Source: Ascidia mentula
Lineage: Eukaryota; Chordata; Ascidiacea; Phlebobranchia; Ascidiidae
Length of the DNA stretch: 64,000 bases
Direction: 5' to 3'
Assembly: GCA_947561715.1 (NCBI GenBank)
Contig: OX387200.1
Coordinates: forward strand, 9,736,501 to 9,800,500
Part shown: positions 24,137-46,675 of the stretch, one piece after another
How the letters are laid out: the number at the start of each line of letters is the position of its first letter
How positions within the stretch are numbered: position 1 is the first letter of the stretch
Notes under the pieces: model-generated
Seen by the model: only the letters and a program-made list of their open reading frames with translations
What the model was told of the DNA's origin: nothing
Databases searched by the model: none
Made by a program: the position numbers and the translations under genes

Positions 24137-24152
24137 TTAAATTAATTGTGCA

Positions 24153-24205
24153 AGCTGCAGACAGATGGCCACTGTTTCGACCTAAAAGGTCTCATCAGTG
24201 CAGCT
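24153..24205 (-). ncRNA. Type I hammerhead ribozyme (insertion A)
   Basis: On the minus strand the 53 bases contain every hammerhead element in order. Stem I is AGCTGCA with TGCAGCT (7 perfect pairs). The core CTGATGA is followed by stem II, GACCT with AGGTC closing a short loop, and then GAAA. Stem III is ACAG with CTGT around a seven-base loop, and the cleavage triplet is GTC. The short stem III is typical of the hammerheads known from Penelope-like elements and retrozymes. All invariant core bases are present, so self-cleavage is expected. Confidence 0.87.
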
Positions 24206-24334
24206 GGTGTGACTATCCCACGACTTTGCTGACCAAACGGCCAAAAAAAGACTTCCAGTTTGTGGTGACTATACAATCACCGTCATCCGTTGAGCACTAA
24301 ACTAGGTGCAACCGTACGGAGAAAACATACCAGA

Positions 24335-25203
24335 TGTAACGTCCGTTGAACGCGCCCCCGTTCTTGGCGCGAAACGTCACACGAGGCGGAATTCCCGCAG
24401 TTAAAACGCGTATCTTTAATGGGCAACAAACTCGCTCACTCAGTTGATGTTATTTCTTGTTGTCAGGAGACGAAAAGAAACGTAGGACACGTGGGCCCTT
24501 AGAACACGGTTTCTACACAGAAGGCAATGTGTCAAACAAATACACTTCACACGTTGTTAATTACAGCATAAGGCTCACCAACTATTTGGGAACCGGGAAA
24601 CTCTGGACCACAAAGACGGTCCAAGCAGTTACTGTCGCACACCTAAACGAAACAGGCAAAATAAAATACAATGCGCCACTATGACGTAATACACACAATG
24701 CTTACCGATAACTTTGGGCGACCGAAGATTGAATACACCACGCTTCACGTGTGTATAAATGCAAGAGAGACATTGTGAGTACAAAGACAGCGTCAACACC
24801 GTGTGTAAACTTAATCACATAAACAAGGGCAGCTATATACTGTTCAGCGAACTGACTTCTAAGTCATCGCAATTAAATTTGCCAATGTTACAATTTACAC
24901 ATTTCGCTTATCAGTCGTTACACACATATGTACACTTATCAGTCGTTACACACATATGTACAAAGAGACTCACCAGAAAATGCTCGCTCGCAACACAAAA
25001 AAACCTTTGCAGAATAAAATGACGTAGCACTGTGCTGCACAGTTGTCGGACACAGAAAGAACAGAACCACGTTGCGTTGTCACTTAAAGCTTGGTCTATT
25101 ATTATTATTGCGTCACAGACCGTATGAGATTGCAACACACATTAGTGTAGAAAAAAATGCGCCTTCATAGAAATCGGCAATTATTGGCAAACAAGATGTA
25201 ACA
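24335..25203 (-). mobile_element. BEL/Pao LTR A (3' LTR of left element)
   Basis: This 869-base LTR begins TGTAACGTCC and ends GATGTAACA on the + strand, i.e. TGTTAC...GTTACA in element sense. It is adjoined on the right by a polypurine tract (G run on the minus strand). It closely matches LTRs B and C apart from small length differences. The five bases outside it (CCAGA) nearly match those right of LTR C (CCAGC), consistent with one target duplication for the whole array. Confidence 0.88.
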
Positions 25204-28200
25204 TACCCCCCCCCACAATGTACGAATCCAAGGAGTACATTTCAACACAACAAACAAACATCGGACAGTAATTGAGCCACTTGCTCCGGGGCTAGTTGTC
25301 ATCCGCCACAAGAACCACATCATTGACCATAAAATTCGAATGTCCACTTGCCCACTTCGATCTGGGCATGAGCGTAGGCAGGTACTCGCGAGACCATCGC
25401 CTCCAAAACTGATCGGCCAGGTATTGCACCTGACGCCACCGGTTTCGATGGTAACAGTCCTTCCCCGCGAACAGTCCTGGGGGCATATTCGGCGCTGTAC
25501 GTTGCAGCAGTAAATGATTGGGAGTAAGGGGCTCCTCATCCTTCGGATCGAACGTCACTGGGACCAAGGGACGGGAGTTTAGGATTGCCTTCACCTCTAC
25601 CATCAGAGTGCACAATCGCTCATCAGACAACGTCTGCTCCGAGAGCAGGGCGTTGGGAATTTTGCGCACAGAGCGTATCATGCGCTCCCATACCCCACCC
25701 ATGTGGCTGGCAGTGGGGGGATTAAAGCTCCATGCAATTTCGCGTTGTTGCAGATATTCGTAAATCTGCTGTTGGTTCCTCTTCTTTAGTTCTTCGCGCA
25801 GGATACGCTCAGCTCCGACGAAATTCGTGCCGTTGTCGCTGAAAATCTGGTTTGGACGTCCACGACGACCCATGAACCGTCGGTCGACAATGAATGGGCT
25901 ATATCGATATGTGCGGCCCTGGTGGAGAAACAAGTAAAGATGCAACCTCTTTACCTCACTTCGCCCTTGCTTCACAAGGAAGGGTCCGAAGTAGTCGACA
26001 CCCACCACTGAAAATGGTGGCTTGTTGGCCTGCAGCCTCGCAGCAGGAAGGTCTGCCATCATCTGCTTCCCCAAGGAACCGTTTCGTCGTCGGCAAGAGA
26101 GACACTTGCCCAGCACGCTTCGAACCGTCATACCTCCTTTGACAATCCAGTAGCGTTGCCTAAGGGACGACCAGGTGTGTCCCATTCCAGCATGACCAAC
26201 TTCATCATGCTGCTGCATAATCACCAGGTCTGTAACCCGATGGTCGTACGGAAGGATGATCGGATGTTTCACGTCGAAGTCGATCAATGCGCGCTCCAGC
26301 CTTCCGCCAACCCTTAGAACTCCATCAACAAGAATTGGGTTGAGCTTTCCCAAAGCTTCCGTCCTTTGCCTTTGACACTGTAGCAATGACGTCTGGGAAA
26401 CTGCGCCCCTGCACGTACTTCACGATCGCAAGCTCAGCAGCTTTGAGTTCGACGACAGTCACTTGACCAGTCGGCACCCTGTACTTATTGGCTAGCAACA
26501 TCGACTTGTAACGGAGAGTCCATCCGACAGCCCTTTTTAACCGATTCCAAGACGAGTACTTAAGTCGATCAGTGGGAGATTCGATGGCGACGAGACAAAC
26601 AGTTTGAGCTTCCTTCTTTATTTGAAGATACTCGATCGGCACGTTGGACAGGTCGGGGGAAGAGGGCCATGTATCTTCTCGTTCCCAAAGAAACTGGGGT
26701 CCACTGAGCCATTGGCTAGAACGGCGGCCGTCAACTCCAGGCGGGGAATCGAACACGTCTTCAGTGGGGCAACACGTGCTTTACCCATCAGAAAGGAACA
26801 GTGAATGCGTCCTCGCTCATCTACCAGCTTCAGGTATGTCACCGCACCGTAAGCTGTAGATGACGCATCTGCGAAATGGTGCAATTCCGTTTTTAGCACC
26901 TTACCGAAACTGCTTGGCTTCACGTATCTAGATAGAACGACATCTTTTAAGCGCGGTAGTTGCTGCAACCATTTCCTCCACGTTTCGGAATCCTCATCGG
27001 AAAGCACGTCGTCCCAACCAAGTTGTTTCCTGCAGAGGTCTCTTAGCATCGTCTTTGCCACCACGATCACGGGCGCTGCAAACCCAAGAGGATCATACAA
27101 CGAACTCACCACTGACAGTATGACTCTTCTGATAAAGGACTTCGGCTGCTTTACGTCAACGGAGAACCCGAACTCGTCCGAGCAAATATTCCACCGAACT
27201 CCGAGAACTCTCTCGCACGACGACCCATCTAGATTCAGCTCTTTCACCGATTTTGCTCGTTCCTCTTCGTCAATGGACGCAAGAACTCGCTCGCTGTTGC
27301 TAACCCACTTGGTCAAACGAAATCCCTTCCTCTTAAAAAGTGTGCAAATACTCTGGACAAGATTTATAGCGTCTGCTTCAGTTGATACAGACTTCAGACA
27401 GTCGTCGACGTAGAAATTCTTCTTTATGGTCTCGACGACCTCACTTGGAAACTCGTTTTGCAAATCTTCAGCAGCCTGCTTCAGGCAAAAGCTCGCACAT
27501 GAGGGGGAGGAAGCCGCCACGAACAGGTGAACCAGCATCCGGTGTGCCATGGGCTTCTTCGACATATCGCCTCCGGGCCACCACAGGAATCGAAGTGCAT
27601 CGCAATCAGTCGGTTGTACACGTATCTGATGGAACATCCGGAATCTTGAAAGGACACCAACCAACGAGTTGGTCAGGTCCGGGCCCTGAAGGAGAGCTTC
27701 ATTCAGCGACTGCCCGCGATGCTTGGCGACGCAGTCGAAAACCACCCGCAGCTTTCCTGGCTGGTGCGGATTTGTGACAGGATGATGTGGCAGATACCAC
27801 ACAACGTCTTTGGTCTGTTTCTCATAAGGAATCTCCTCTGCATAGCCTTTAGCTATGTAACCCAGGACCGTCTTCATGTATGCGTCCCGCAGAAAGTCAT
27901 CACGCATCAGGCGGCGTTCCAAAGATCTCAGACGGTTTAGTGCCATGTCCCTGTTGTTGCGCAGCGGCTGCGCATTCGGACGCCACGGCAACGGCAACTC
28001 ATAATGTCCCTGCTGGAATTTCACACCGTACTTCATTTTTTCTAAAACATACCGGTCTTCACGGGACATAGGTATCTCTGTGCAGTTGGTATCCTGAAAG
28101 TCGGTCTTCCACATTCGCTCTGGCTTATCCTGTAGCGAATTATCGGCAACTTAGGTAAAGTTCACTGCAAACCAATCGTTTGATTTCTTGCAGACAGGTC

Positions 28201-30765
28201 CCGCTAAGGCCCATCCAAGTGGAACCCTAAATGCAATAGGCTGCTTCGGTTTTTCCTTGCGTACCTCTTGTATGAAAAAGGCATCTGGCACATCCAAACC
28301 AATCAGCAGCAAGGCTTCACTGCAGTCAACACGCGGGAATGACAGATCCTTGATATGAGGCAGTCCGTTCAATTCTATCTTTGTCGGAAACTTGTTGGCG
28401 GAAATAGGCAAACAATCAACGGCAAACACTTCCGGGAGTTCCACGGTTGCAGCACCATCAAGCGAAGCAACGGTCAAGCAAACCATCTTGCCTTCGCGCC
28501 TGCGACTCATAGTGACACCAGAACCAGTATCCAAAAGAGCTTCTTGCCTTCGCCCCTGCGTCACACAAAGTGACACCAGAACCAATATCCAAAAGAGCGT
28601 TCGTGTTTACGCACCTTTCGTTGGCATTGGCCTTGACGGAAACCATCATCAGATTGACATTTTGGCGACCAGAAGAAGCATGACAGTCCCTTTCACTTGC
28701 CGACACAACCGAACAGACAGTGCGTTCCGGTGTGCGGTTCCTAACAGGGGAGGATTCGTCTTCTCTCTTCTCCGGTCGATGCAACAATGTATGATGAGCT
28801 TCTATGCAGTCCTTCACTGTTGTTGCACCTTGTAGCAAAATGTCCAAATCGAAAACAGTTGTCATATAGTCTGCGGCGTCGAGTAACGCGCAAACGATCA
28901 CGGTACGACCGGGATTTAAATTCCTCGCACTTTACAAGGCCGTGCCTTCCTGAACAGCACGGACACAAAGGGACTGCTGGAACTTGGGAAGGTCAAGCTT
29001 GAGCCTTGGGCTTAGACTCTTCTTCCTTTACAGCGAAATGACTAGAGGCCTTTACGTGACTAGCTTTACCTTTTGCTTTCTTGGCTTCGTTGCGATGCTC
29101 GTCCAGCATACGACTAAAGAGCGAATTCGCAATCTGATTCTCAGATTCCACGAAGTCAACGAGATGCTCGAACAGAGGTTCACGGCCAGTCTCTTTTATT
29201 ATTTTTGCAACACGTCGTTTCCAAGCTTCCTGCATCTTGAACGGAAGACGATTTGCAACAGCAATTAGCGTTGGATAGTTATTCATCTCAGAATGCTCGT
29301 CAATGTCTGAAAGAGTAAGTAGACAATCGCGCAGCGACTGCGCCATTTCGCTTAAACCAGCAGCGTCATTTGGCCGTAATTCTAGGCCGTTGACTACACA
29401 CCTTACGCATGCATGGGCAATCATGTGTGACTTGCCATATTGATCGTACAACAACTGCCTCGCTTGCCGGTACCCGTTTTCCCTCAGTCTGTGGTAGTAT
29501 TCTATCAGCTTTCGGGCCTTTCCTTCGCAATGCTGAACCAAGTACGATAGTTTGGCTCCCTCGTCATCGACCTTATGTCGTCGATACGAGAATCGAAATT
29601 GCGAACAAACTTCTAATAGTCCATTGGATTGCCATAAAAAATAGTCACTTCAGGTTTGGGGCTATTTATGTGTTTCACAAGCGATGCAATTTCACTTTCA
29701 TGCATTTTGTTGGCTTGGCAGGTTCATTTTTAGGGGTCACACTCGGATTTATTGGATTCTTGTAATCTCGCCCGTCAAACGAGGATTTCTTATCAGGATA
29801 TGGCGACGGAGACAAAGTGGGGGTTACATAATCAACCTCATACCGCTGGTCCGGAAGTCTTTGCTGCGACGTGAACTGAACGCGACGCTGTTCCTCAAAC
29901 GGCTGCTCCGGGGGTGGTGTAGGCATTCCTCCAGAACCATCCTTGACCGTCAAGTACTCCGTGTTTCCTGACATCTCGTCCAAAACCTTCTCTTCAACCA
30001 CGGCTGCCTGCAATTTATGCTGCAGCTGTACCATCTCCATGTCGTCCCTTTGGAGCCTTTCTTCTTCAGCTTGTCGCCTTGTTTCGGTCATTTTTCTTTC
30101 TTCATGTTGCTTTGCCAGCGCCTGTCTTTGCGCAGTCTGTTGAATTGCAAGACGCGCGAGCTGAGTAGTCGCTTTGACGCGAGCTCTACTACTTGTCGAA
30201 GAACTAGAGCGTATACTTCGTCCGCAGGACGAGTTGTTGTCCTTCAGACTACCGTCACCGCTTCCACCTGGGCTGGTTGCATGCCCAGGTAAATCACGAC
30301 AAGATTGCGAGTTTGCCTCACAAACCCAGTGGGCAACTCGGTCGTCAAATTCAGTTTTGTTTTTCTTTACGCTTGCAAGATCATCGGCAAGCTCGGGATG
30401 CGCCTTGTAGGCGTCAACCGCATCAATAAAAAGCTGTTCTAAAAGAACCAAGACCGTCTCAAGCACTTGCAAGTTGCGACGATCCTTCATCAGACACTCG
30501 GCGATGATGTATTGTCCACTGAGTCGTCGAAGACGATCAACGACAGCATCAGGAAGTGTCGGTGGAGAAACGCTTGGTTCTGCTATATTGAAAGGCGAAC
30601 TTGCCAAGATACTTAAACTTTCTTTCCTCAAAAGGTTGAAACTTGCTTTCAACAAACAGTTGAACCTTGCTTTCAACAAACAGTTGAACCTTCCTTCAAC
30701 AAACAGTTGAAACTTGCTTTCAACAAACGGTTGAACCTTCCTTCAACAAACAGTTGAAACTTTCA
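25204..30765 (-). mobile_element. BEL/Pao internal region, left element (broken)
   Basis: In minus-strand order this holds a leader with tandem repeats (about 30635-30763), gag (about 29.0-30.7 kb, with a DUF1759-like region), a zinc-knuckle stretch (about 28.75-28.97 kb), protease (about 28.15-28.9 kb), reverse transcriptase and RNase H (about 26.4-28.1 kb, with YVDD) and integrase (about 25.3-26.4 kb, with a zinc-binding HHCC region, DNGTNF and a C-terminal DUF5641-like part). The order and motifs are those of BEL/Pao. It is a fossil, broken in perhaps half a dozen or more places, but recent. Confidence 0.88.
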
Positions 30766-31674
30766 TGTAACGTCCGTTGAACGCGCCCCTGTTCTTGGCG
30801 CGGAACATCACACGAGGCGGAGAATTCCCGCAGTTAAAACGCGTATCTTTAATGGGCCTCAAACCCGCTCACTCAGTTGATGTTATTCTTGTTATCGAAT
30901 GTGCAGTACGCACTCGTACGCAAGATAGAATGTATTCGAAGTGTAGACGATACAGACGTCGGGAGGAGACGAAAAGACACGTAGGACACGTGGGCCCTTA
31001 GAACACGGTTTCTACACAGAAGGCAATGTGTCAAACAAATACACTTCACACGTAGTTAATTACAGCATAAGGCTCACCAACTATTTGGGAACCGGGAAAC
31101 TCTGGACCACAAAGACGGTCCAAGCAGTTACTGTCGCACACCTAAACGAAACAGGCAACATAAAATACAATGCGCCACTATGACGTAACACACACAATGC
31201 TTACCGATAACTTTGGGCGACCGAAGATTGAATACACCACGCTTCACGTGTGTATAAATGCAAGAGAGACACTGTGAGTACAAAGACAGCGTCAACACCG
31301 TGTGTAAACTTAATCACATAAACAAGGGCAGCTATATACTGTTCAGCGAACTGACTTCTAAGTCATCGCAATTAAATTTGCCAATGTTACAATTTACACA
31401 TTTCGGTTATCAGTCGTTACACACATATGTACAAAGAGACTCACCAGAAAATGCTCGCTCGCAACACAAAAAAACCTTTGCAGAATAAAATGACGTAGCA
31501 CTGTGCTGCACAGTTGTCGGACACAAAAAGGACAGAACCACGTTGCGTAGTCACTTAAAGCTTGGTCTATTATTATTATTGCGTCACAGACCGTATGAGA
31601 TTGCAACACACATTAGTGTAGAGAAAAATGCGCATTCATACAAATCGGCAATTATTGGCAAACAAGATGTAACA
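30766..31674 (-). mobile_element. BEL/Pao LTR B (shared middle LTR)
   Basis: This 909-base LTR has the same ends as LTRs A and C. It serves as 5' LTR of the left internal region and 3' LTR of the right one, the layout left by recombination between LTRs of a tandem pair. A polypurine tract follows it at 31677-31685. Confidence 0.88.
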
Positions 31675-34600
31675 TACCCCCCCACAATGTACGAATCCAA
31701 GGAGTACATTTCAACACAACAAACAAACATCGGACAGTAATTGAGCCACTTGCTCCGGGGCTAGTTGTCATCCGCCACAAGAACCACATCATTGACCATA
31801 AAATTCGAATGTCCACTTGCCCACTTCGATCTGGGCATGAGCGTAGGCAGGTACTCGCGAGACCATCGCCTCCAAAACTGATCGGCCAGGTATTGCACCT
31901 GACGCCACCGGTTTCGATGGTAACAGTCCTTCCCCGCGAACAGTCCTGGGGGCATATTCGGCGCTGTACGTTGCAGCAGTAAATGATTGGGAGTAAGGGG
32001 CTCCTCATCCTTCGGATCGAACGTCACTGGGACCAAGGGACGGGATTTTAGGATTGCCTTCACCTCTACCATCAGAGTGCACAATCGCTCATCAGACAAC
32101 GTCTGCTCCGAGAGCAGGGCGTTGAGAATTTTGCGCACAGAGCGTATCATGCGCTCCCATACCCCACCCATGTGGCTGGCAGTGGGGGGATTAAAGCTCC
32201 ATGCAATTTCGCGTTGTTGCAGATATTCGTAAATCTGCTGTTGGTTCCTCTTCTTCAGTTCTTCGCGCAGGATACGCTCGGCTCCGACGAAATTCGTGCC
32301 GTTGTCGCTGAAAATCTGGTTTGGACGTCCACGACGACCGATGAACCGTCGGTCGACAATGAATGGGCTATATCGATATGTGCGGCCCTGGTGGAGAAAC
32401 AATTAAAGATGCAACCTCTTTACCTCACTTCGCCCTTGCTTCACAAGGAAGGGTCCGAAGTAGTCGACACCCACCACTGAAAATGGTGGCTTGTTGGCCT
32501 GCAGCCTCGCAGCAGGAAGGTCTGCCATCATCTGCTTCCCCAAGGAACCGTTTCGTCGTCGGCAAGAGAGACACTTGCCCAGCACGCTTCGAACCGCCAT
32601 ACCTCCTTTGACAATCCAGTAGCGTTGCCTAAGGGACGACCAGGTGTGTCCCATTCCAGCATGACCAACTTCATCATGCTGCTGCATAATCACCAAGTCT
32701 GTAACTCGATGGTCGTACGGAAGGATGATCGGATGCTTCACGTCGAAGTCAATCAATACACGCTCCAACATTCCACCAACCCTTAGAGTTCCATCAACAA
32801 GAATTGTGTTGAGCTTTCCCAATGCTCTCTTCTTCTTTGGCAAACAAACAGTTCCGTCCTTTGCCTTTGACACTGTAGTAATGACGTCTGGGAAACTGCG
32901 CCCCTGCACGTACTTCACGATTGCAAGCTCAGCAGCTTTGAGTCCGACGACAGTCACTTGACCACTGGGCACCCTGTACTACGACGGAAACCCATTGGCT
33001 AGCAACATCGACTTGTATCGGAGAATCCATCCGACAGCCCTTTTTAACCGATTCCAGGACGAGTACTTAAGTCGATCAGTGGGAGACTCGTTGGCGACGA
33101 GACAAACAGTTTGAGCTTCCTTCTTTATTTGAAGAAACTCGATCGGCACGTTGGACAGGTCGGGGGAAGAGGGCCACGTATCTTCTCGTTCCCAAAGAAA
33201 CTGGGGTCCACTGAGCCATTGGCTAGATCTTACAAATTTGTTCACATCAAGTCCACGTGACGCTTCGTCAGCAGGGTTTACCTTTGTGCTTACACGCCTC
33301 CACTGATTTGGATGAGATGCCTCTTCAATTTTAGCTAAGCGGTTTGCTACGAACACGGGAAAGCGCTTGTTGCAGTTGCGAATGCTTTGGAAAACGGCAG
33401 TCGAGTCTGTCCAGAACACAGATTGGCATCCGACCAGATGCAATTCCTTCCTCGCAAGTTGATCCAACTTGACTGAAACAACGGCGGCCGTCAACTCCAG
33501 GCGGGGAATCGAACACGTCTTCAGTGAGGCAACACGTGCTTTACCCACCAGAAACGAACAGTGAATGCGTCCTCGCTCATCTACCAGCCTCAGGTACGTC
33601 ACCGCACCATAAGCTGTAGATGACGCATCTGCGAAATGGTGCAATTCCGTTTTTAGCACCTTACCGAAACTGCTTGGCTTCACGTATCTAGGTAGAACGA
33701 CATCTTTTAAGCGCGGTAGTTGCTGCAACAATTTCCTCCACGTTTCGGAATCCTCATCGGAAAGCACGTCGTCCCAACCAAGTTGTTTCCTGCAGAGGTC
33801 TCTTAGCATCGTCTTTGACACCACGATCACGGGCGCTGCAAACCCAAGAGGATCATACAACGAACTCACCACTGACAGTATGACTCTTCTGATAAAGGAC
33901 TTCGGCTGCTTTACGTCAACGGATAACCCGAACTCGTCCGAGCAAATGTTCCACCGAACTCCGAGAACTCTCTCGCACGACGACCCATCTAGATTCAGCT
34001 CTTTGACCGATTTTGCTCGTTCCTCTTCATCAATGGACGCGAGAACTCGCTCGCTGTTGCTAACCCACTTGATCAAACGAAATCCCTTCCTCTTAAGAAG
34101 TGTGCAAATACTCTGGACAAGATTTATAGCGTCTGCTTCAGTTGATACAGACTTCAGACAGTCGTCGACGTAGAAATTCTTCTTTATGGTCTCGACGACC
34201 TCACTTGGAAACTCGTTTTGCAAATCTTCAGCAGCCTGCTTCAGGCAAAAGCTCGCACATGAGGGGGAGGAAGCCGCCCCGAAGAAGTGAACCAGCATCC
34301 GGTGTGCCGTGGGCTTCTTTGACATATCGCCTCCGGGCCACCACAGGAATCGAAGTGCATCGCAATCAGTCGGTTGTACACGTATCTGATGGAACATGGC
34401 TTCCACGTCGGCCACGAGAGCCACCTGTCCCATCCGGAATCTTGAAAGGACACCAACCAACGAGTTGGTCAGGTCCGGGCCCTGAAGGAGAGCTTCATTC
34501 AGCGACTGCCCGCGATGCTTGGCGGCGCAGTCGAAAACCACCCGCACCTTTCCTGGCTTGTGCGGATTTGTGACAGGATGATGTGGCAGATACCACACAA

Positions 34601-37028
34601 CGTCTTTGGTCTGTTTCTCATTAGGAATCTCCTCTGCATAGCCTTTAGCTATGTAACCCTGGACCGTCTTGATGTATGCGTCCCGCAGAAAGTCATCACG
34701 CATCAGGCGGCGTTCCAAAGATCTCAGACGGTTTAGTGCCATGTCCCTGTTGTTGCGCAACGGCTGCGCATTCGGACGCCACGGCAACGGCAACTCATAA
34801 TGTCCCTGTTGGAATTTCACACCGTACTTCATTTTATCTAAAACATACCGGTCTTCACGGGACATAGGTATCTCTGTGCAGTTGGTATCCTGAAAGTCGG
34901 TCTTCCACATTCGCTCCAGCTTATCCTGTAGCGAATCATCGGCAACTTGGGTAAAGTTCACTGCAAACCAATCGTTTGATTTCTTGCAGACAGGTCCCGC
35001 TAAGGCCCATCCAAGTGGAACCCTAAATGCAATAGGCTGCTTCGGTTTTCCTTACCGTACCTCTTGTATGAAAAAGGCATCTGGCACATCCAAACCAATC
35101 ATCAGCAAAGCTTCACTGCAGTCAACACGCGGGAATGACAGATCCTTGATATGAGGCAGTCCGTTCAATTCTATCTTTGTCGGAAACTTGTTGGCGGAAA
35201 TGGGCAAACAATCAACGGCAAACACTTCCAGGAGTTCCACAGTTGCAGCACCATCAAGCGAAGCAACGGTCAAGCAAGCCATCTTGCCTTCGCGCCTGCG
35301 ACTGTCTCCGTTGACCATTTTCAGCGTCACGTTGCTCGGTTCACCTTTCAGCCCAAGCCTTTCAGTTAACTTCCTGTGACACAAAATGGCACCAGAACCA
35401 GTATCCAAAAGAGCGTTCGTGTTTACGCACCTTTCGTTGGCATTGACCTTGACGGAAACCATCATCAGATTGACATTCTGGCGACCAGAAGAAGCATGGC
35501 GGTCCCTTTCACTTGCCGACACAACCGAACAGACAGTCCGTTCCGGTGTGCGGTTCCTATAACAGGGGAGGATTCGTCTTCTCTCTTCTCCGGTGGATGC
35601 AACAATGTATGATGAGTTTCTATGCAGTCCTTCACTGTGCACGCCCTGGGGCTGTTGCACTTTGTAGCAAAATGTCCAAATCGAAACAGTTGTCATATAG
35701 TCTGCGGCGTCGAGTAACGCGCAAACGATCACGGTACGACCGGGATTTAAATTCCTCGCACTTTACAAGACCGTGCCTTCCTGAACAGCACGGACACAAA
35801 GGGACTGCTGGAACTTGGGAAGGTCAAGCTCGAGCCTTGGGTTTAGACTCTTCTTACTTTACAGCGACATGACTAGAGGCCGTTACGTGACTAGCTTTAC
35901 CTTTAGCTTTTCGTCCAACATACGACTAAAGAGCGAATTCGCAATCTGATTCTCAGATTCCACGAAGTCAACGAGATGCTCGAACAGAGGTTCACGGCCA
36001 GTCTCTCTGATTATTTTTGCAACACGTCGTTTCCAAGCTTCCTGCATCTTGAATGGAAGACGATTTGCAACAGCAATTAGCGTTGGATAGTTATTCATCT
36101 CAGAATGCTCGTCAATGTCTAAAAGAGTAAGTAGACAATCGCGCAGCGACTGCGCCATTTCGCTTAAACCAGCGTCATTTGGCCGTAATTCTAGGCCGTT
36201 GACGACACACCTTACGCATGCATGGGCTATTATGTGTGACTTGCCATATTGATCGTACAACAACTGCCTCGCTTGCCGGTACCCGTTTTCCCTCAGTCTG
36301 TGGCAGTATTCTATCAGCTTTCGGGCCTTTCCTTCGCAATGCTGAACCAAGTACGATAGTTTGGCTCCCTCGTCATCGACCTTGTCGTCGATACGAGAAT
36401 CGAAATTGCGAACAAACTTCCAATAGTCCATTGGATTGCCATCAAAAATAATCACTTCAGGTTTGGGTCTATTTATGTGTTTCACAAGCGATGCAATTTC
36501 ACTATCATGCACGTTTGTTGGCTTGGCAGGTTCATTTTTAGGGCTTACACTCGGATTTATTGGAGTCGTGTAATCTCGCCCGTCAAACGAGGATTTCTTA
36601 TCAGGAACATATGGCGACGGAGACAAAGTGGGGGTTACATAATCAACCTCATACTGCTGGTCCGGAAGTCTTTGCTGCGACGTGACAGGCGGATACGTGA
36701 ACTGAACGCGACGCTGTTCCTCAAACGGCTGCTCCGGGGGTGGTGTAGGCGTTCCTCCAGAACCATCCTTGACCGTCACGTATACTCCGTGTTTCCTGAC
36801 ATCTCGTCCCAAACCTTCTCTTCAACCACGGCTGCCTGCAATTTATGCTGCAGCTGTACCATCTCAATGTCGTCCCTTTGGAGCCTTTCTTCCTCGGCTC
36901 GTCGCCTTGTTTTTCAAAAGGTTGAACCTTGCTTTCAACAAACAGTTGAAACTTGCTTTCAACAAACAGTTGAAACTTGCTTTCAACGAACAGTTGAACC
37001 TTCCTTCAACAAACAGCTGAAACTTTCA
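31675..37028 (-). mobile_element. BEL/Pao internal region, right element (broken)
   Basis: In minus-strand order this has a short leader with tandem TTCAACAAACAGTTGAA units (about 36917-37024), gag (about 35.9-36.8 kb), protease (about 35.05-35.7 kb, with NALLDTGSGA), a long open reverse transcriptase/RNase H stretch (32979-34961, with YVDDCLKSV and HHFADASSTAYGAV) and integrase (about 31.76-32.97 kb). It is nearly identical to the left element over most of pol. It is a broken fossil, with fewer interruptions in pol than the left element; probably young. Confidence 0.88.
36917..37024. repeat. Tandem palindromic leader repeat
   Basis: Four or more units of about 27-28 bases contain the near-palindrome TTCAACAAACAGTTGAA and alternate with CTTGCTTTC or CTTCC. 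They lie directly beside the 5' LTR of the right BEL element. The left element has the same array at 30635-30763 with more units. Confidence 0.75.
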
Positions 37029-37905
37029 TGTAACGTCCGTTGAACGCGCCCCGGTTCTTGGCGCGGATCGTCACACGAGGCGGAGAATTCCCGCAGTTAA
37101 AACGCGTATCTTTAATGGGCCTCAAACTCGCTCACTCAGTTGATGTTATTCTTGTTATCGAATGTGCAGTACGCACTCGTACGCAAGATAGAATGTATTC
37201 GAAGTGTAGACGATACAGACGTCGGGAGGAGACGGAAGGACACGTAGGACACGTGGGCCCTTAGAACACGGTTTCTACACAGAAGGCAATGTGTCAAACA
37301 AATACACTTCACACGTAGTTAATTACAGCATAAGGCTCACCAACTATTTGGGAACCGGGAAACTCTGGACCACAAAGACGGTCCAAGCAGTTACTGTCGC
37401 ACACCTAAACGAAACAGGCAACATAAACTACAATGCGCCACTATGACGTAACACACACAATGCTTACCGATAACTTTGGGCGACCGAAGATTGAATACAC
37501 CATGCTTCACGTGTGTATAAATGCAAGAGAGACACTGTGAGTACAAAGACAGCGTCAACACATAAACAAGGGCAGCTATATACTGTTCAGCAAACTGACT
37601 TCTAAGTCATCGCAGTTAAATTTGCCAATGTTACAATTTACACATTACGTTACACACATATGTACAAAGAGACTCACCAGACCTGCTCGCTTGCAACACA
37701 AAAAAAACCCTTTGCAGAATAAAATGACGTAGCACTGTGATGCACAGTTGTCGGACACAAAAAGGACAAAACCACGTTACGTTATCACTTAAAACTTGGT
37801 CTATTATTATTACGTCATAGACCGTATGAGATTGCAACACACATTAGTGTAGAGAAAAATGAGCATTCATAGAAATCGGCAATTACTGGCAAACAAGATG
37901 TAACA
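37029..37905 (-). mobile_element. BEL/Pao LTR C (5' LTR of right element)
   Basis: This 877-base LTR has the same termini as A and B and differs from B by only a few changes per hundred bases, which points to a young insertion. It abuts the right half of hammerhead insertion A at 37906. Confidence 0.88.
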
Positions 37906-37959
37906 CCAGCGGCCATCTGTCTGCAGCTTACACAATTCATATTATTGGCTCCACTTTGC
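37906..37959 (+). mobile_element. Right half of hammerhead insertion A (ribozyme remnant)
   Basis: The half contains the stem III 3' strand, the GTC cleavage site and the stem I 3' strand TGCAGCT of a plus-strand hammerhead; the catalytic CTGATGA side is missing. It ends TTATTGGCTCCACTTTGC just before the duplicated target. Confidence 0.7.
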
Positions 37960-38533
37960 TTAAACTAATTGTTTGGAATTTGTAAAGATAGGATTTGCGC
38001 CCCATGACTTAAACAGATGTAGTTTCTATGTTACCAAACTTTAGTCTCGACGTTACATGTTTAAACTAAAACGATACATGTGTGTGAGTAAATCACATTG
38101 GAAAACCGTTTGTCAATTTTGCCGGTTACCAACCACATACCAGTGGGGACCACATTGTGAGGATACACATGAATGCGTTTTTATATCCTGTCGATTCTGC
38201 ATACTTAAAAGCGATTTCACTTCTGGCGCATGCATTGACGTGCTATGTGTCATCGACAACTCCACTTTCATGAATAGGTGGTTTTCTGAGGTTGGGTAAA
38301 TTGGAGACTGGGACAGATAGAAATTTGAAATGTTCGCAGTTTAATTGTTATTAGGCCATGTTCTTCCTGAAGATAGTTGATTATATGCATTAACATACAA
38401 TAGATTTGTGGGCCTATACTTAACGCAGCTTTTGTGAAATGTACTGTATTTTGGACCCCAAACGAAGCAACCTTACAAATTATTACGCCAAAAAATTACA
38501 TAGAATACACTTCTGTTACAAATACTTACCAAT

Positions 38534-38685: not shown

Positions 38686-40402
38686 ATGATGGAACCAGCA
38701 CAAGCATCTGGAGAAGTGGAAAGAAGAAGCCTTAAGTTTAAAGTTGAAATGGAATATCGCGACACCGAAATTTGTCTCCAAGTTCGCGACGGTCGTTACG
38801 CGGTGAAAGTGGATGGCGCTTTCCGTGATGTGGGCACTGCTCTCTTTTCGCAATTCGAACCGAGGGATATAGTGAGATATGGTGGCTATGTAGCTGTGCT
38901 CTGCTTTGCTTTACACAAGATGGGCATCTCCGCTACCGACTTTCGCCCCGGCAGCATAGCGTTCACTGCTGACGTGGATAAGAAACAGGCAACTGAGATT
39001 ATGAAGAACGCCAATTCGGGAAAACTGGATTTAGAGCTTTATAAATATGCAATGGAGGTTGCCCTGGAGTTTTCCATGCAGTATTTGAATGCCTTCAAGT
39101 TTAACTCCGTGTCTGTTGTTGGTAAGAAAGTTTAGAAAAATAGCAACAGTTTTTGTTGCTTCACTGACATTTTTGGCAACTACTGCTCCAGTATTTTTTT
39201 ATACAACTGTTTTAACTTCAAAATATATTGATTATTTGCTGACAAATTGTTTAAAAACATACGCAGATGAGGGCAAGACCACTTTTAACTTCCAAGAGGC
39301 GAAGCTGGATGGTGCACGGGCTGGAATTGGCGACTACACAAAAGTTAATGTGGAGCCGGGAGCTGCTGTAGATAAAGGTTTGAATAAATAATTGTTGGCA
39401 GTCTACTACACCTTACTAAAATATTTCAACTTCACATATAGCACAACGAACTTCTTGGCTTAAATGCGTTTCATATATTATGTGCTGTTCTTGCTGTTAT
39501 ACTGTTTGTTATACACAGATTATACAAAAAGTCAAAACCGAGATCTTCACACAAAATTATCATTCACTTTTTTGCAGAAACAATAAGAAGCATTGCTGGT
39601 GCAAACAAACCGGCAACTGGTAAGTAGCAAAACCAATTTTTCTGATGAAAAAATTACAAGATTTTGCCGGAGTTTATAACTAACGCGGATAAAACTTGTG
39701 CAAGAAAATACAAAACCCCACAAAGTAAATACAACAAAATATTGCGGGACCAATGACGTGTTGTGAACTATGTTGTTTTTCGGGTCAAGGAATTATAATA
39801 AACCGAATGCTCATCTCTACCATGAGACAAAATATATGGAGAAAGTTCATTGCTCCCGACTTAGCGTCTTCCTGTACGTCACATCCTGTAATATAAACGT
39901 TTGAACCATAACGTCTAGAACTTGATGCCAAACGTAAATTTCGTGGCGTTGTATGTGACAAGAGTGTGCTATCGAAAATGAAACAAATGTATGCCTATAA
40001 AAATACCTAAAATGTACATTGATAATCACTATTAAGTGCGCTGCATAATGTTGATAGCATATATCTACATTGGTGCCAAGACTACTTTGGCACAATTCCT
40101 GGATGTAAAAGCTTGATGCGACATATTTAAATGCTTGGACCGTGTCGCCTGTAAACAGCCTTCATCAATATGAAACAAACCTTTGTTGCCCGTCTTCTGT
40201 TTATACAGAGCAATACGTCGATTGCAATACAGGTTTTTGCTTATGAAGGTTTAATCGTATTTGTTGTTCAGGTGGTACCGAAGTGTACAACTTCAACAAT
40301 TCAGTCATCAAAGATTCGGTAGCTGGTGTCAGAACTATGCAAGAATATACATTCGGTGCGAAAGGTGCTGAAAACCCCAAAGATAAAAAGCAAGAAAAAT
40401 AA
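38686..40402 (+). CDS. Array gene copy 5, unknown 239-residue protein
   Basis: Coding exons are 38686-39121, 39267-39377, 39578-39619 and 40272-40402, with phase 1 introns of 145, 200 and 652 bases. The 5' acceptor ends at 38642, again 43 bases before the ATG, and AATAAA lies at 40539-40544. The protein keeps all family blocks (for example RDIVRYGGYVAVLCF and SGKLDLELYKYAME) and ends NPKDKKQEK. It combines the long type of intron 1 (as in copies 2 and 4) with the long type of introns 2 and 3 (as in copies 1, 3 and 6), so it appears to be a recombinant. Family unknown. Confidence 0.82.
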
Positions 40403-40544
40403 CTAATCACAACTGATTCTCGCTGACCTGAACAAAATTAATACCGTGTTACATCTTATATCCAAGTAATTGCTGATTTCTATTAAATTTCTCATTTCTC
40501 CAAGACTATGTGTTGTAATCTATTGTGGTATGTGACGTAATAAA

Positions 40545-43500
40545 TAACTGCTGGTTTTATTTGAAAACACAACGTGGTTTAGTTTTTTTCGAGTTTTACT
40601 TCCGTGGAGCGCGGTGATGCGTCAGTCGTTGTGTATTTCTCTATTGCATAGAATAATATTGGTGAGCCGGTTTATACCTACATGTATTGTTGGCCTTTTG
40701 AACAAAATCATCAAAACTGTAACTGCTCTAGTCTTATAGGGTACAATTGTATGAAACTATTCTTGAAATGATTGAAAGTTACGTAACCACAAGGCGGGCG
40801 CCAATTTATGACATTACACCAAAATTACGACAATGAGCGTTATGAGCTCTCGAAGAAACACATCTAGCCCGACCTATCTTCTGCCGATAATCAAAGCAAA
40901 TACAACGTCAACTAATTCCCTCTCGATCTGTCGGATGTACTGGCTCTCATCAGCTGCAGCCTTCTTTGCAAGTTTGCCACCTTCGTCCTTAATGGAGCCA
41001 TCGTAGGCCATAGCCCTTGACATCAATGGTGCAGTAAACGAACGACCCACTGAAAGAGATTTGGAAAACGCACGCAACATTTCAGCAGTTTCCTATATAT
41101 GGACTGAAAAATAAAAACGTGGCTTTAATATAATCTGCACCACGCCCGAGCTCACATGGCAAAACAACTATTAGGGTTCATCGACATTGTGAAATGAATG
41201 TCGGCACTTGTGAAAACGAAGTTTTATAGCACAGAGGAAAAAACAAGGGGCGACAACAAACGGTGATAAAGTTTCTGGACTGTTCCAAACAGCTGCAGCG
41301 ATGGTGGTTACGTGCGGGAATTCACAGAGACAGAAGTCGTGCAATGTCAAACAGGGGTATTTTATCCGCAGGCGTACAACCTTCTTTCTACAACTGTGTG
41401 ATTACTGTGATGTAACGACAATCGTTATTTCCATATGTTTTAGATGTCACCAACAGTCTTGTGTTATAAAAAAGAAACACTTTTTAAAGAAAAACTTTGA
41501 GTTGGTCAGTTGAACGAACGTATGAAACCTGGAGTTCGGGGGTGGAACAAGTGCTGCAGTGCTCCGCTTCCCAAAGGCAAATCTTAAGTGGCATGAAAAT
41601 ACACATATATTGCGCTCAAATCTCTGCGTTCCTTCACGCTCACGAAGAATACGAGTAAAACGCAGGGAGTCGAACCGCTCATCATACGGATACAGTTCCG
41701 GTTCGGGTTTCTAATTTGTTTGTTTTCCCCTTTAACTCCGGTTTGGGTTTCAAAAGTTTTTCATCCGGTCCTGTTCCGGTTAGCGTTGTAAAATTTATAC
41801 GCAAGGGGTACGGATTCAGATCCGGTTCAACCAAATTAACGCTCATGGGGATCAAAGGTTTAGATTAAGGGCCTCTTTACTACTGTTTCAGCATTTTCGG
41901 AAGGCAAAGACGTTTCAGTTCAAAAAGGGGAGTTTTATCCGGTTTAGTTCCGGTTCGGGTTTTTGCAGATTTCACTTTACTGCTTCGGGTTCAGCCCCGG
42001 TTCATGAAAATAAACCGTTCAAACCGGTTCTCATTTGCGGGTTCAGTTCCGGATCGACACTCTGGTAAATACACTGGAATACAGCGACATACTAACCAAT
42101 GTATTCTGCGAAGTCAAGTTTGTGAAGGAATATTTTTATGCAATGCAGACCGTTTGACCTTTTTAAGTTGTGAACCTTTGTCGCAAAGTTATATAGATGG
42201 TCTGGATTATGCCTTGTCTTTTTTCCAAGCAGGGATTATCAACTAGCTCAACGACAAAATAGAAACAAGCGATAGCACAGTGTTCGCTACTACAGCATGA
42301 ACGATAACAATGAATTTCTGTTGATTTCCAAATCATTCCAAATCAAAACACTACATTTTAGCGTCAGTATACAAAACGTTTTAACAACCTCGGTTCAATT
42401 ATAACGTAATCTATCTTTTTGGCGATCCTGCGCTTGCGCACCATTGTTCCTTGTCCTTTTTTTTATTGGGTGTATCAGGAAACAGGAACAACTTCATTGT
42501 TTGGGGAGTTTGGTATCCCCGCTAAGAAAAATAGTTTTTGGATCCCATGGTTTAAACAACTGTTCCACTTTTTGCGTAATGAAACAGGTTTCGGGGGCAT
42601 GCTATATAGGTATCATTAAAAATTTACATGCGCAATATCAAAGATATAGTTTTCACAGGTTTAGGTTGGTTAGTGAGAGTTTATTTGATAATCACACCAA
42701 ACGAAATTTAGATGTTACAAAAGTAAACAGAGCGCTTTAAAAATATCTTGCAGTCTTATTATAAGCGATCATAGCAGACAGCTCTGTAAATGTTGATTAT
42801 AAAGAAAAATACATTTCGCTAAATTTTCGTAAAGGCATTAGAAGTTTCCTAAAGTACATAAAGTTTTTGTAGACACTAATGATGCTTTTGTATCGAAATA
42901 TATTTTTGTACAAAAATATACAGAGCTGTCTGGAATTATCGCTTCGACACGCATGATTGCGTTTTAGTTCTACCAAGTGCACAACCTTCATCGTCGGGCT
43001 TTGTTTAGCCTGCTAAACTTCCGCTTTCATGAAGACTGGTGTTTAATTAAAAAGAGCAGGATGCAAGGCTTGACGGGTCACTGTTCCGTTCATTGCTGTT
43101 CTCGGAAGCTTGTAGTTAAATATTAACTGTAAAACAACAGTCTTTGTTGGTCGCATTTGGCATTTTATAGGATTAATGACTGACAAATGGTGTCCCAGGT
43201 TCTACCTTGGAGTTTAACTTGATTAAACCAATTATTAACTAGTGATTCTGGAATAAATCAGGGCTTTACAACTATGGACTGCGACCCAATTTGTTGTCAC
43301 CAAATTACAGTCGCAAAACTGACATACAACCTAATATTTATTATGGTAAATGCATTGTTTATCATTTTTGTGTAAGTTTTTAGATCCAGGTTGTACTTTT
43401 TATGTCGTTATTGCTTGTGTCTCTTGATTCGTGGAACAGGAAGGCTGAATGTCCATGTCACATGATAATGTGCTGATATATAACGTCTCTTGCGGATTCT

Positions 43501-44266
43501 AGTAAATAAATACAGTCTATACATGTATGGGGGTGGATAGAAATACCAAATAGGCAGGTAAACAACCACTACCGATACTATGGTGGCCTGAATTATTCTT
43601 TGCTGTTAAGTAGGAGCAGTTGGCAATTGGGGGCGAAGAATTGAAACAGCAACTTTCCCGATTTCAGGGTAAGATAGATTAATTTTGAAACCTGACATTT
43701 TGGTTTGTTTCACTTTATCTCGTGACAACTTCAAACATATCAGGTGTATCGAAAACATAAAGATGTTTAAATGAATTGTTTGGGATTGTTATGGATAGGT
43801 TTTGCTCCCTATCACTTAAACAGTTGTAGTTTCTAGGTTACCAAACTTTAGTCTCGACGTTACATGTTTAAACTAAAACGATACATGTGTGTGTGTAAAT
43901 CACATTGGAAAAACATTTGTCTATTTTATCGGTTACCAACCACGTACCAGTGCGCCACATTGTGAGGATACATATGATATCCAGTCGATTTGGCAGGCTT
44001 AAAGGCGATTTCACTTCTGGCGCATGCATTGACGTGCCATGTGTCATCGACAACTCCACTTTCATGAATAGGTAGTTTTCTGAGGCTGGGTAAATTGGAG
44101 ACTGGGACAGATAGAAATTTGAATTGTTTGCAGTTTCATTGTGATTAGGACATTTTCTAAAGATGGTAATGCATTAACATACAATAGATTTGTGGACCTA
44201 TACTTTACGCAGAAATGTGAAATGTACTGTACTTCTGTTGGAAATACTTACCAATTTAATTTGCAG
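40545..44266. repeat. Inter-gene spacer, type X, unit 5 (with tract identical to 6.37-8.94 kb)
   Basis: This spacer is the partner of the unit 2 spacer. Bases 40729-43299 read the same as 6372-8942, while the flanks differ at several positions per hundred bases. It contains the second IF1 fragment and the second CCGGTT-type patch (about 41667-42047). The end (about 43300-44266) leads to copy 6. No other gene is supported. Confidence 0.7.
40874..41080 (-). pseudogene. Fragment of mitochondrial ATPase inhibitor (IF1), copy B
   Basis: This copy is identical to the fragment at 6517-6723: presequence MLRAFSKSLSVGRSF, inhibitory-helix start GSIKDEGGKLAKK and the same unrelated end. It lies inside the identical tract and so was copied with it. 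It has no separate evidence of function. Confidence 0.65.
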
Positions 44267-44309
44267 TTCGTAACGCTACAGGTTGGTCTAAAATATTGTG
44301 TAATTAACT

Positions 44310-45959
44310 ATGATGGAACCAGAACAAGCATCTGGAGAAGTGGAAAGAAGAAGCCTGAAGTTTAAAGTTGAAATGGAATATCGCGACACCGAAATTTGTC
44401 TCCAAGTTCGCGACGGTCGTTACGCGGTGAAAGTGGATGGCGCTTTCCGTGATGTGGGCACTTCTCTCTTTTCGCAATTCGAACCGAGGGATATCGTAAA
44501 ATATGGTGGCTATGTAGCTGTGCTTTGCTTTGCTTTTTACAAGATGGGCATCTCCGCTTCCGACTTTCGCCCCGGCAGCATAGCGTTCACTGCTGACGTG
44601 GATAAGAAACAGGCAACTGAGATTATAGAGAAAGTCAATTCGAGAAGACTGGAATTAGAGCTTTATAAATATGCAATGGAAATTGCCCTGGAGTTTTCCA
44701 TGCAACATTTAAATGCCTTGAAGTTTAACTCCGTGTCTGTTGTTGGTAAGAATGTTTAGAACAAAAGTTAACTGTTTTAACTTTAAAATATATTGGTCAT
44801 TTGCTGACAAATTGTTTACAAACATACGCAGATGAGGGCAAGACCACTTTTAACTTCCAAGAGGCGAAGCTGGAAGATGCACGGGCTGGAATTCGCAACT
44901 ACACAAAAGTTAATGTGAAGTCGGGAGCTGATGTAGATCCAGGTTTGAATAAATAATTCTTGGCAGTCTACTACACCTTACTAAAATATTTCAACTTCAC
45001 ATAGCACAACGAATTTCTTGACTTAAATGCGTTTCATATATTATGTGTTGTTTCTGCTGTTATACTGTTTCTTATACACAGATTATACAAAAAGTCAAAA
45101 CCGAGATCTTCACACAAAATTATCATTCACTTTTTTGCAGAAACAATAAGAAGCATTGCTGGTGCAAACAAACCGGCACCTGGTAAGTAGCAAAACAATT
45201 TTTTTTATGAAAATATAACTAGATTTTTCAGGAGTTCATAACAAACGGATAAAACTTGTGCAAGAAAATACAAAACCCCATAAAGCAAATACAACAAATT
45301 ATTGCGGGACCAATGACGTGTTGTGAACTATGGTGTTTGGGGGTTAAGGAATTATAATAAACCGAATGCTCATCTCTACCATGAGACAAAGTATATGGAG
45401 AAAGTCCATTGCTCCCGACTTAGCGTCTTCCTGTACGTCACATCCTGTAATATAAACTTTTGAACCATAACGTCTAGAACTTGATGCCAAACGTAAATTT
45501 CGTGGCGTTGTATGTGGCAAGCGTGTGCTATTGAAAATGAAAAGAATATATGCCCATAAAAATACCTAAAATGTACATTGATAATCACTATTAAGTGCGC
45601 TGCATAATGTTGATAGCATATCTACATTGGTGCCAAGACTACTTTGGCACAATTCCTGGATGTAAAAGCTTGATGTGACGTATTTAAATGCTTGGACCGT
45701 GTCGCCTGTAAACAGCCTTCATTAATATGCAACAAACCTTTGTTGCCCGTCTTCTGTTTATACAGACCAATACGTCGATTGCAATACAGGTTTTTGCTTA
45801 TGAAGGTTTAATCCTATTTGTTGTTCAGGTGGTACCGAAGAGTACAACTTCAACAAAGCACACATCAAAGGATCGGTAGCTGGTGTCAGCAGTATGCAAG
45901 AATATACATTCGGCGAGAAAAGTGCTGAAAACCCCAAAGATAAAATCCAAGAGAAGTAA
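44310..45959 (+). CDS. Array gene copy 6, unknown 239-residue protein
   Basis: Coding exons are 44310-44745, 44832-44942, 45141-45182 and 45829-45959, with phase 1 introns of 86, 198 and 646 bases. The 5' acceptor ends at 44266. AATAAA lies at 46095-46100. The N-terminus is MMEPEQASGEVERRSLKFK, and the hydrophobic GGYVAVLCFAFYKMG block and two repeat exons are intact. It is most like copy 3 in intron layout. Family and function are unknown; conserved frame and splice sites argue that it is expressed. Confidence 0.82.
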
Positions 45960-46332
45960 CTGATCACAACTGATTCTTGGTGACCTGAACTATATTAATA
46001 CTGTGTTACATCTTATATCCAAGTAATTGCTGATTTCTATTAATGTCACATTTCTCCAAGACTATGTGTTGTAATCTATTGTGGTATGTAACGTAATAAA
46101 TAACTGCTGGTTTTATTTGAAAACACAACGTGGTTTAGTTTTTTTCGAGTTTTACTTCCGTGGAGCGCGGTGATGCGTCAGTCGTTGTGTATTTCTCTAT
46201 TGCATAGAATAATATTGGTGAGCCGGTTTATACCTATATGTATTGTTGGCCTTTTGAACAAAATCATCAAAACTGTAACTGCTGTAGTCTTATAGGGTAC
46301 AATTGTATGAAACTATTCTTGAAATGTGTATA

Positions 46333-46385
46333 AGCTGCAGACAGATGGCCACTGTTTCGACCTAAAAGGTCTCATCAGTGCAGCT
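46333..46385 (-). ncRNA. Type I hammerhead ribozyme (insertion B, left)
   Basis: The 53 bases are identical to the ribozyme at 24153-24205: stem I AGCTGCA/TGCAGCT, core CTGATGA, stem II GACCT/AGGTC, GAAA, stem III ACAG/CTGT and cleavage after GTC. Confidence 0.87.
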
Positions 46386-46575
46386 GGTTATTGTGACACG
46401 GGGCCTGACGGCACTATTGGTTGAGCTTTGCTTGGCCATAGTGTTTCCACCTTGTTTTCTCCGTTTTGGTTGCACCTAGTTTGGTGCCCAACGGATGACG
46501 GTGATTGTATAGTCACCACAAAGTGGAAGTCTTTGCTTGGCCGTTTGGTCACCAAAGTCGTCTGATAGTCACACC

Positions 46576-46628
46576 AGCTGCACTGATGAGACCTTTTAGG
46601 TCGAAACAGTGGCCATCTGTCTGCAGCT
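46576..46628 (+). ncRNA. Type I hammerhead ribozyme (insertion B, right)
   Basis: The same 53-base ribozyme occurs on the + strand with all core bases and stems. With the left copy it forms a perfect 53-base inverted repeat, so a transcript across the insertion could pair the two ribozymes with each other instead of folding each alone. Confidence 0.87.
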
Positions 46629-46675
46629 TATACACATTTCATATTATTGGCTCCACATTGCTTATTCTTGAAATG

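What the first reader, a model, noticed from the sequence alone, without database searches (positions are those of the whole stretch)
46327..46662. Small insertion unit with two complete hammerhead ribozymes in inverted orientation
Two 53-base type I hammerheads with all core residues face each other about 190 bases apart in a 336-base insertion with perfect 13-base target duplications. Insertion A shows the same plan, so this may be a distinct non-autonomous, ribozyme-bearing retroelement. In known retrozymes and Penelope-like elements ribozymes lie in direct, not inverted, order, which makes the paired layout notable.
Basis: partly seen in the sequence, partly recalled or inferred. Interest (0 to 1): 0.8.

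Follow-up and report, generated by a model that had tools for sequence, protein, structure and literature searches.

The report
Ribozyme retroelement inserted from both ends
A small RNA-derived mobile element carrying a self-cutting ribozyme sits in the genome as two mirror-image halves, apparently because both cut ends of the target DNA were used to copy the same kind of RNA inward, following the same rule as the larger Penelope-like retroelements of this genome.

Summary
In detail: 46327-46662 is a 336-base insertion with a 13-base target duplication. Paralogous empty sites lie in the same window, and each strand carries one type I hammerhead. The family has 1366 hammerhead copies (up to 3 mismatches) in this 196-Mb genome. 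Its unit is a 285-nt tandem-capable repeat, as in metazoan non-LTR retrozymes. The inverted layout is neither an accident nor a new element class.

In a positional sample of 71 distinct insertions, 32 are head-to-head and none tail-to-tail. In 31 of those 32, one outer end lies near nt 15 and the other near nt 45 after the ribozyme cut. Close pairs have the same orientation in a second retrozyme family (8:0) and among GIY-YIG genes of Penelope-like elements (PLEs) (19:0). All three PLE loci read at both ends have one tailed and one tail-less end (34-44 nt apart).

Best reading: PLE-type machinery cuts both target strands. Each 3' end primes reverse transcription at one of two start sites on retrozyme RNA, and the two cDNAs are joined in the middle.

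New, as far as the papers searched show, are the retrozyme-PLE link by insertion anatomy and the one-end-per-start-site rule.

The parts
46314..46326 (.). left target-site duplication TATTCTTGAAATG
   Evidence: single copy in paralogous empty sites near 40758-40770
46327..46384 (-). left cDNA: inverted 58-nt piece, unit positions 13 (outer end) back through the ribozyme to about 241 (inner end)
   Evidence: segmentation and TSD anchoring
46334..46384 (-). hammerhead ribozyme, minus strand; cut site between 46340 and 46339
   Evidence: mirror of the right copy through the 69-nt inverted repeat; core read by inspection; Rfam sub-threshold only
46385..46662 (+). right cDNA: nearly one full 285-nt unit, position 50 round the circle to position 42 (outer end)
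46577..46627 (+). hammerhead ribozyme, plus strand; cut site after C46621
   Evidence: core read by inspection; 1366 genomic copies with up to 3 mismatches
46635..46662 (+). 'tail': stretch between the two reverse-transcription start sites (unit about 14-42), present on the right end only
   Evidence: compare the PLE tail in PMC11167929 and PMC3846280
46663..46675 (.). right target-site duplication
24150..24327 (-). insertion A, left arm of the same family (unit 13 to about 117), ribozyme region 24152-24208 identical to 46332-46388
37905..37960 (+). insertion A, right arm (unit about 271 to 44); separated from the left arm by a later BEL/Pao-like block (about 24334-37904); 12-nt TSD with 1 mismatch at 24138-24149 and 37961-37972
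   Evidence: TSD read by eye

Best explanation
The insertion is a retrozyme: a non-coding retroelement whose hammerhead cuts tandem transcripts into 285-nt RNAs that are probably circularised. A Penelope-like (GIY-YIG/RT) machinery inserts it. The enzyme makes a staggered break of about 13 nt in AT-rich DNA. Each of the two 3' ends primes reverse transcription, with 0-6 nt of pairing, at one of two start sites on the RNA about 30 nt apart (near nt 15 and nt 45 after the ribozyme cut). The two cDNAs run inward for varying lengths, sometimes several times round, and are joined at their 3' ends with little or no homology. The product is head-to-head with RNA 3' ends outward, one end tailed and one tail-less, so the two ribozymes end up inverted. 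Shown by sequence: TSD, empty site, orientation rule, paired ends, variable joints, tandem laps, the same plan in PLE loci of this genome. Inferred: that a PLE enzyme does it, that the template is circular, use of both ends in one event, and ribozyme activity.
For: Orientation: '-+' 33 loci and '+-' 0 of 77 sampled; 32 of 71 after removing duplicated loci. Paired ends: 31 of 32 head-to-head insertions by segmentation alone, 27 of 28 with TSD of 9 nt or more. TSD of 11 nt or more in 42 of 86 loci, against 4 of 5103 permuted flank pairs. TSD bases are 457 A/T of 591. Pairing at the start sites averages 1.62 nt against 0.76 for exchanged flanks. Inner joints: 38 different ones in 39 insertions, so nearly all are made anew; joint microhomology averages 1.38 against 0.67 (37 joints). 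Tandem laps up to 6 units with 0.4% divergence in L020. Same orientation in a second retrozyme family (8 against 0) and among GIY-YIG matches (19 against 0). Three of three PLE loci read at both ends have one tailed and one tail-less end, 34-44 nt apart, with 12-nt TSDs. Purified Poseidon PLE protein cuts and extends both strands and starts at two internal sites bounding the 'tail' (PMC11167929, parts 1-2 of 4 read).
Against: No PLE was found whose RNA shares the retrozyme's start-site sequence; seven GIY-YIG loci were read at their 3' side. The in vitro PLE study saw no difference in start site between the two strands, so the one-site-per-end rule is not predicted by it. One inner joint (149|11) is identical in two insertions at different sites, L004 and L064; uniform chance gives such a repeat in 0.8% of trials, so one of them may be inherited or the point may be a hot spot. 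Arms of one insertion share variants more than random members (22 of 56 against 6.1 expected), but in several insertions (L004, L011, L023, L090) none are shared, so a single template molecule is not shown. Mean arm-to-arm divergence within insertions (0.051) is hardly below that between insertions (0.054). Over half of the sampled insertions (39 of 71) are not head-to-head. 26 of 80 TSD-anchored ends have no pairing at all. Ribozyme cleavage and RNA circles are untested here.
Confidence: 0.81

Rival explanations
1. Self-priming: the first cDNA or an antisense RNA folds back and copies itself, giving a palindrome (the explanation offered for head-to-head PLEs in PMC3846280).
For: Inverted arms are near-identical in many copies and some joints are close to palindromic: inner offsets of +4, +5 and +15 in L018, L011 and L077, and the family-2 copy in L074 is nearly a palindrome, 86% over 262 nt.
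Against: Fold-back predicts inner ends at the same unit position. Observed offsets spread over the whole circle from -142 to +126 in 37 joints. It does not explain why the outer ends are at two different start sites in 31 of 32 insertions.
Confidence: 0.08
2. L1-type twin priming: the second target end primes inside the same linear RNA, upstream of the first cDNA.
For: One insertion, L087, fits: right arm from about 49 back to 234, left inverted piece 225-194 just upstream, 14-nt TSD.
Against: In the other 31 of 32 head-to-head insertions both arms start in the same 3' region, 23-38 nt apart where TSD-anchored, and often copy the same sequence. L1 twin priming gives non-overlapping pieces (recalled).
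Confidence: 0.04
3. Inherited inversion: an existing head-to-head copy is transcribed through and re-inserted whole.
For: L004 and L064, with different TSDs, share the joint 149|11 exactly. Segmental copies with the same TSD also exist (L088/L089, L056/L057; family-2 pairs with equal spacing).
Against: 38 different joints in 39 insertions.
Confidence: 0.04
4. A miniature DNA transposon with terminal inverted repeats that happens to carry ribozymes.
For: Perfect 69-nt inverted arms and a TSD.
Against: Outer ends differ on the two sides; arm lengths, inner joints and number of units vary from copy to copy; TSD length varies (mostly 12-14, range 9-16 among those of 9 nt or more); direct tandem and single-orientation copies occur.
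Confidence: 0.02

Closest known systems
Metazoan non-LTR retrozymes (Cervera and de la Pena 2020, PMC7229834)
   Same: Type I hammerhead in a roughly 300-bp non-coding unit of low GC (here 47.4%), tandem copies, TSDs longer than 4 bp (parts 1-2 of 6 and passages read).
   Different: The paper describes tandem direct repeats; a text search of its main text for 'inverted' and 'head-to-head' found none. Here nearly half of the sampled insertions are head-to-head, with defined paired ends.
EN-containing Penelope-like elements with inverted pLTRs and a 'tail' (PMC3846280, passages; PMC11167929, parts 1-2 of 4)
   Same: Head-to-head inverted repeats, a 30-40 nt tail on one end, target duplication, two internal reverse-transcription start sites, AT-rich targets.
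   Different: The retrozyme unit is 285 nt and has no RT/EN gene. Its start sites lie 10-20 and 40-49 nt after the ribozyme cut, against about 56/100 and 75/117 nt after the hammerhead-like cut in two PLE families of this genome (hand count). The tail was called optional there; here one end of nearly every head-to-head insertion has it.
L1 twin priming
   Same: A second target end primes on the RNA and gives an inverted piece (recalled).
   Different: There the pieces do not overlap (recalled); here both arms start at the RNA 3' region. Only L087 looks like twin priming.

Membership tests
metazoan non-LTR retrozyme | type I hammerhead with complete core and open helix I | tested here: met
   Core and helices read by inspection; 1366 near-identical copies. 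Caveat: Rfam only sub-threshold; loop-loop tertiary contacts not assessed.
metazoan non-LTR retrozyme | short tandem units (150-450 bp), GC below 50% | tested here: met
   285-nt unit, arrays up to about 6 laps; GC 47.4%.
metazoan non-LTR retrozyme | no LTR, no coding capacity, TSD longer than 4 bp | tested here: met
   No ORF of 150 aa or more overlaps 46327-46662 (a weak test for so short a unit); TSD mostly 12-14 where found. PBS and PPT not searched.
metazoan non-LTR retrozyme | self-cleavage and circular RNA in tissue | not testable with these tools
   Only a fold: circular MFE -89.6 kcal/mol, z -2.4 against 200 dinucleotide shuffles.
Penelope-like element | ORF with RT and GIY-YIG endonuclease | tested here: not met
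   Not in this element. A PLE ORF of 886 aa elsewhere in the genome (L070) has both domains, so it is at most a passenger of PLEs.
Penelope-like insertion mechanism | head-to-head inverted ends, 30-40 nt tail on one, two reverse-transcription start sites | tested here: met
   31 of 32 head-to-head insertions; three of three PLE loci read at both ends show one tailed end. Genomic anatomy only, no enzyme assay.
Penelope-like insertion mechanism | shared RNA recognition sequence with a PLE of the same genome | tested here: inconclusive
   No shared start-site sequence in the seven GIY-YIG loci read; 134 GIY-YIG matches were listed.
TIR DNA transposon / MITE | fixed identical ends and fixed TSD length | tested here: not met
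L1-type twin priming | two non-overlapping inverted pieces of one RNA | tested here: not met
   31 of 32 not of this form; L087 is.

The most novel reading that the evidence does not exclude
Each head-to-head insertion is made by a concerted two-enzyme reaction. A PLE dimer gives each side of the staggered break its own dedicated start site on the RNA. The new copy then consists of two first-strand cDNAs joined at their 3' ends, with no classical second-strand step between target ends. Retrozyme circles are passengers of this reaction, and rolling round the circle gives the tandem arrays.
Probability: 0.55. Interest if true: 0.8.

Novelty: new variant of a known kind. Interest (0 to 1): 0.63.

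Why it matters
Which machinery moves metazoan retrozymes has been an open question; PLEs were proposed from co-occurrence, shared ribozymes and tandem copies (PMC7229834; PMC7761336; passages). For the head-to-head repeats of PLEs, the one paper seen that explains them suggests self-priming and leaves the point open (PMC3846280). With over a thousand very similar copies, this genome shows both questions in one pattern: two start sites, one per target end. That gives a direct prediction for the purified PLE enzyme and for a plasmid retrotransposition assay.

Tried and rejected
TIR transposon, inherited inversion and L1 twin priming were rejected as the general route, and fold-back disfavoured. 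An assembly artefact was judged unlikely because of the TSDs and the empty sites.

I looked for a partner PLE sharing the retrozyme start-site sequence and found none in the regions read.

The test of whether both arms come from one RNA molecule was inconclusive. Raw divergence hardly differs (0.051 within, 0.054 between; lower within in 19 of 28). Shared variants are above expectation (22 of 56 against 6.1), but subfamily structure could give the same.

A tempting detail was dropped. In the window copy the left TSD end (TGAAATG) is fully complementary to its own right arm, as if 7 nt of primer had annealed. The 23-nt variant is rare (2 exact places in the genome). The second place (L092) is a more divergent copy with a damaged ribozyme, and the core of the variant also stands at the joint of L004. 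So template variant, recurrent mutation and arm-to-arm conversion cannot be told apart.

L015-L017 (retrozyme pieces inside a longer tandem genomic repeat) were first suspected to be PLE ends; no PLE-like ORF was listed in the two of the three scanned (L015, L017).

The organism was not identified: a COX1 family search did not complete.

Rows dropped: L007 and L001 (overlap other loci). Six duplicated loci (L016, L017, L054, L057, L078, L089). For the inner-end histogram, also L009, L015 and L053. For joints, the loci named in the scripts. For the arm tests, those. The C2:5388500 locus was not fetched.

Full report
What is there. The window insertion 46327-46662 is real: a perfect 13-nt TSD and 69-nt perfect inverted arms. 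Paralogous stretches of the same window, around 40739-40800 and 6382-6443, carry the target once and uninterrupted. Each arm holds a hammerhead core, one per strand, read by inspection. Rfam reports hammerhead families only below its cut-offs. The window lies in a 195.8-Mb genome in 79 contigs. The ribozyme (45 nt, up to 3 mismatches) occurs 1366 times there, against 0 for the reversed control.

The unit. Tandem copies define a 285-nt unit. I number it from the first base after the ribozyme cut. As a circle it folds to -89.6 kcal/mol (z -2.4 against 200 shuffles), and nt 12-60 form a stem-loop with an AC-rich loop. The window copy is a 58-nt inverted piece (13 back to about 241) followed by a nearly full unit (50 round to 42).

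Sampling. One search lists the first 100 exact ribozymes by position. I grouped them into 78 loci (66 on C1, 12 on C2) and fetched 77. One was left out because the list ends inside it. Each locus was segmented against the circular unit, with jumps allowed. In 33 of 77 a minus segment is followed by a plus segment (pieces of 20 nt or more); in 0 of 77 is a plus followed by a minus. After removing six duplicated loci it is 32 of 71. Of the remaining 44 of the 77, 39 are single-orientation and 5 are complex or have only shorter pieces of the other orientation (L009, L015-L017, L058). The sample requires an exact ribozyme, so at least one arm must reach unit position 247; insertions with very short cDNAs are missed.

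Ends. TSDs of 11 nt or more were found in 42 of 86 loci (the 77 plus nine others), against 4 of 5103 permuted flank pairs. Where a TSD of 9 nt or more anchors them, outer 3' ends fall at unit positions 10-20 or 40-49, save one end of L087. Within one head-to-head insertion, one end is of each kind: 27 of 28 with such a TSD and 31 of 32 by segmentation alone. The distance averages 29.6 nt, range 23-38 (31 insertions; L003, L004, L006, L089 and the window included). The one exception, L087, looks like L1-type twin priming. Single-orientation insertions with such TSDs end 10 times at the near site and 6 times at the far one. The 3' end of the target pairs with the RNA beyond the start for 1.62 nt on average (1.93 near site, 1.29 far site), against 0.76 when flanks are exchanged; 26 of 80 ends show none.

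Joints and laps. Inner ends of the two arms are unrelated (offsets -142 to +126 in 37 joints), with a little microhomology (1.38 against 0.67 nt). 39 insertions have 38 different joints; L004 and L064 share one exactly, which uniform chance gives in 0.8% of trials. 14 of 100 inner ends lie at 235-245, at the 5' edge of the ribozyme. A structured RNA that stalls the enzyme would give this, but the sampling threshold at 247 may add to it. Some arms run several times round (up to 6 laps in L020, 0.4% divergence among laps). A circular or tandem RNA allows this; a self-cleaved linear monomer does not.

Other elements of the genome. A second retrozyme family (903 motifs with up to 1 mismatch) has 8 '-+' and 0 '+-' close pairs among its first 100 places, with 6 distinct spacings, so some may be duplicates. 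One copy read in full, in L074, has a 12-nt TSD and ends 12 and 38 nt after the cut (lengths counted by hand). GIY-YIG matches (134 listed; 150 of 382 candidates were scored) form 19 '-+', 7 '++', 1 '--' and 0 '+-' neighbours within 8 kb. Three PLE loci, two of one family, were read at both ends. Each is head-to-head with a 12-nt TSD and one end 34, 42 or 44 nt longer (lengths counted by hand). The ORF of one (886 aa) has RVT_1 and GIY-YIG domains. PLE 3' regions carry hammerhead-like motifs (by pattern only).

Insertion A. Window pieces 24150-24327 (-) and 37905-37960 (+) are the two arms of one older insertion of the same plan, later split by a BEL/Pao-type block. The BEL/Pao name is my reading of the ORFs, not a family search, and the imperfect TSD was read by eye.

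What it works like. Frangieh et al. 2024 (PMC11167929, parts 1-2 of 4 read) show that a PLE protein cuts and extends both strands and starts reverse transcription at two internal sites that bound the genomic 'tail'. PMC3846280 (2013, passages) describes head-to-head inverted pLTRs with a 31-bp tail on one, and suggested self-priming. The retrozyme data fit two-sided target-primed reverse transcription better than self-priming, because the inner ends are unrelated and the outer ends sit at two sites.

What it is. It is a metazoan-type non-LTR retrozyme by unit, ribozyme and TSD. It is not a PLE. PLE mobilisation was proposed before from co-occurrence, shared ribozymes and tandem copies (PMC7229834 and PMC7761336, passages).

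Novelty. In the open-access library the listings showed no title or opening abstract reporting head-to-head retrozymes or a one-start-site-per-end rule. Subscription papers, preprints and supplements were not seen.

Limits. Ribozyme activity, RNA circles and the enzyme are inferred. No PLE with a matching start-site sequence was found. Whether both arms are copied from one RNA molecule is open. The organism is unknown.

Noticed in passing
window 24334-37904: About 13.5 kb of BEL/Pao-like retrotransposon sequence with long repeated stretches (93-95% alike), inserted between the two arms of an older retrozyme insertion; possible 5-nt duplication ACCAG.
   Followed up: partly
L074 960-1245: Second, diverged retrozyme family (903 motifs in the genome) with the same head-to-head plan, 12-nt TSD, ends 12 and 38 nt after the cut.
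   Followed up: partly
L087: The one exception to the end rule looks like classical twin priming: left inverted piece 225-194, right arm 234 to 49, 14-nt TSD.
   Followed up: no
L004 and L064: Two insertions with different TSDs share the same inner joint (149|11): inherited inversion or a joining hot spot.
   Followed up: no
G000:C67:6134028-6146916: PLE array with five regularly placed GIY-YIG genes (spacing 2870 within each arm), head-to-head, with open frames of 559-892 aa: probably recently active.
   Followed up: partly
window 12800-13974: A nearly palindromic 1.17-kb stretch (arms of 182, 74, 59 and 50 nt, 84-100% complementary), unexplained.
   Followed up: no
window 5606-11743 and 39964-46074: A 6.1-kb block repeated in the window, 97% alike, with further diverged copies; its kin supply the empty sites used here.
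   Followed up: partly
L015, L016, L017: Retrozyme fragments (unit about 142 to 28) embedded in a longer genomic repeat (about 2.1-2.8 kb apart), amplified with it.
   Followed up: partly
retrozyme unit positions 235-245: 14 of 100 inner cDNA ends fall at the 5' edge of the hammerhead; the sampling threshold at 247 may add to this.
   Followed up: no
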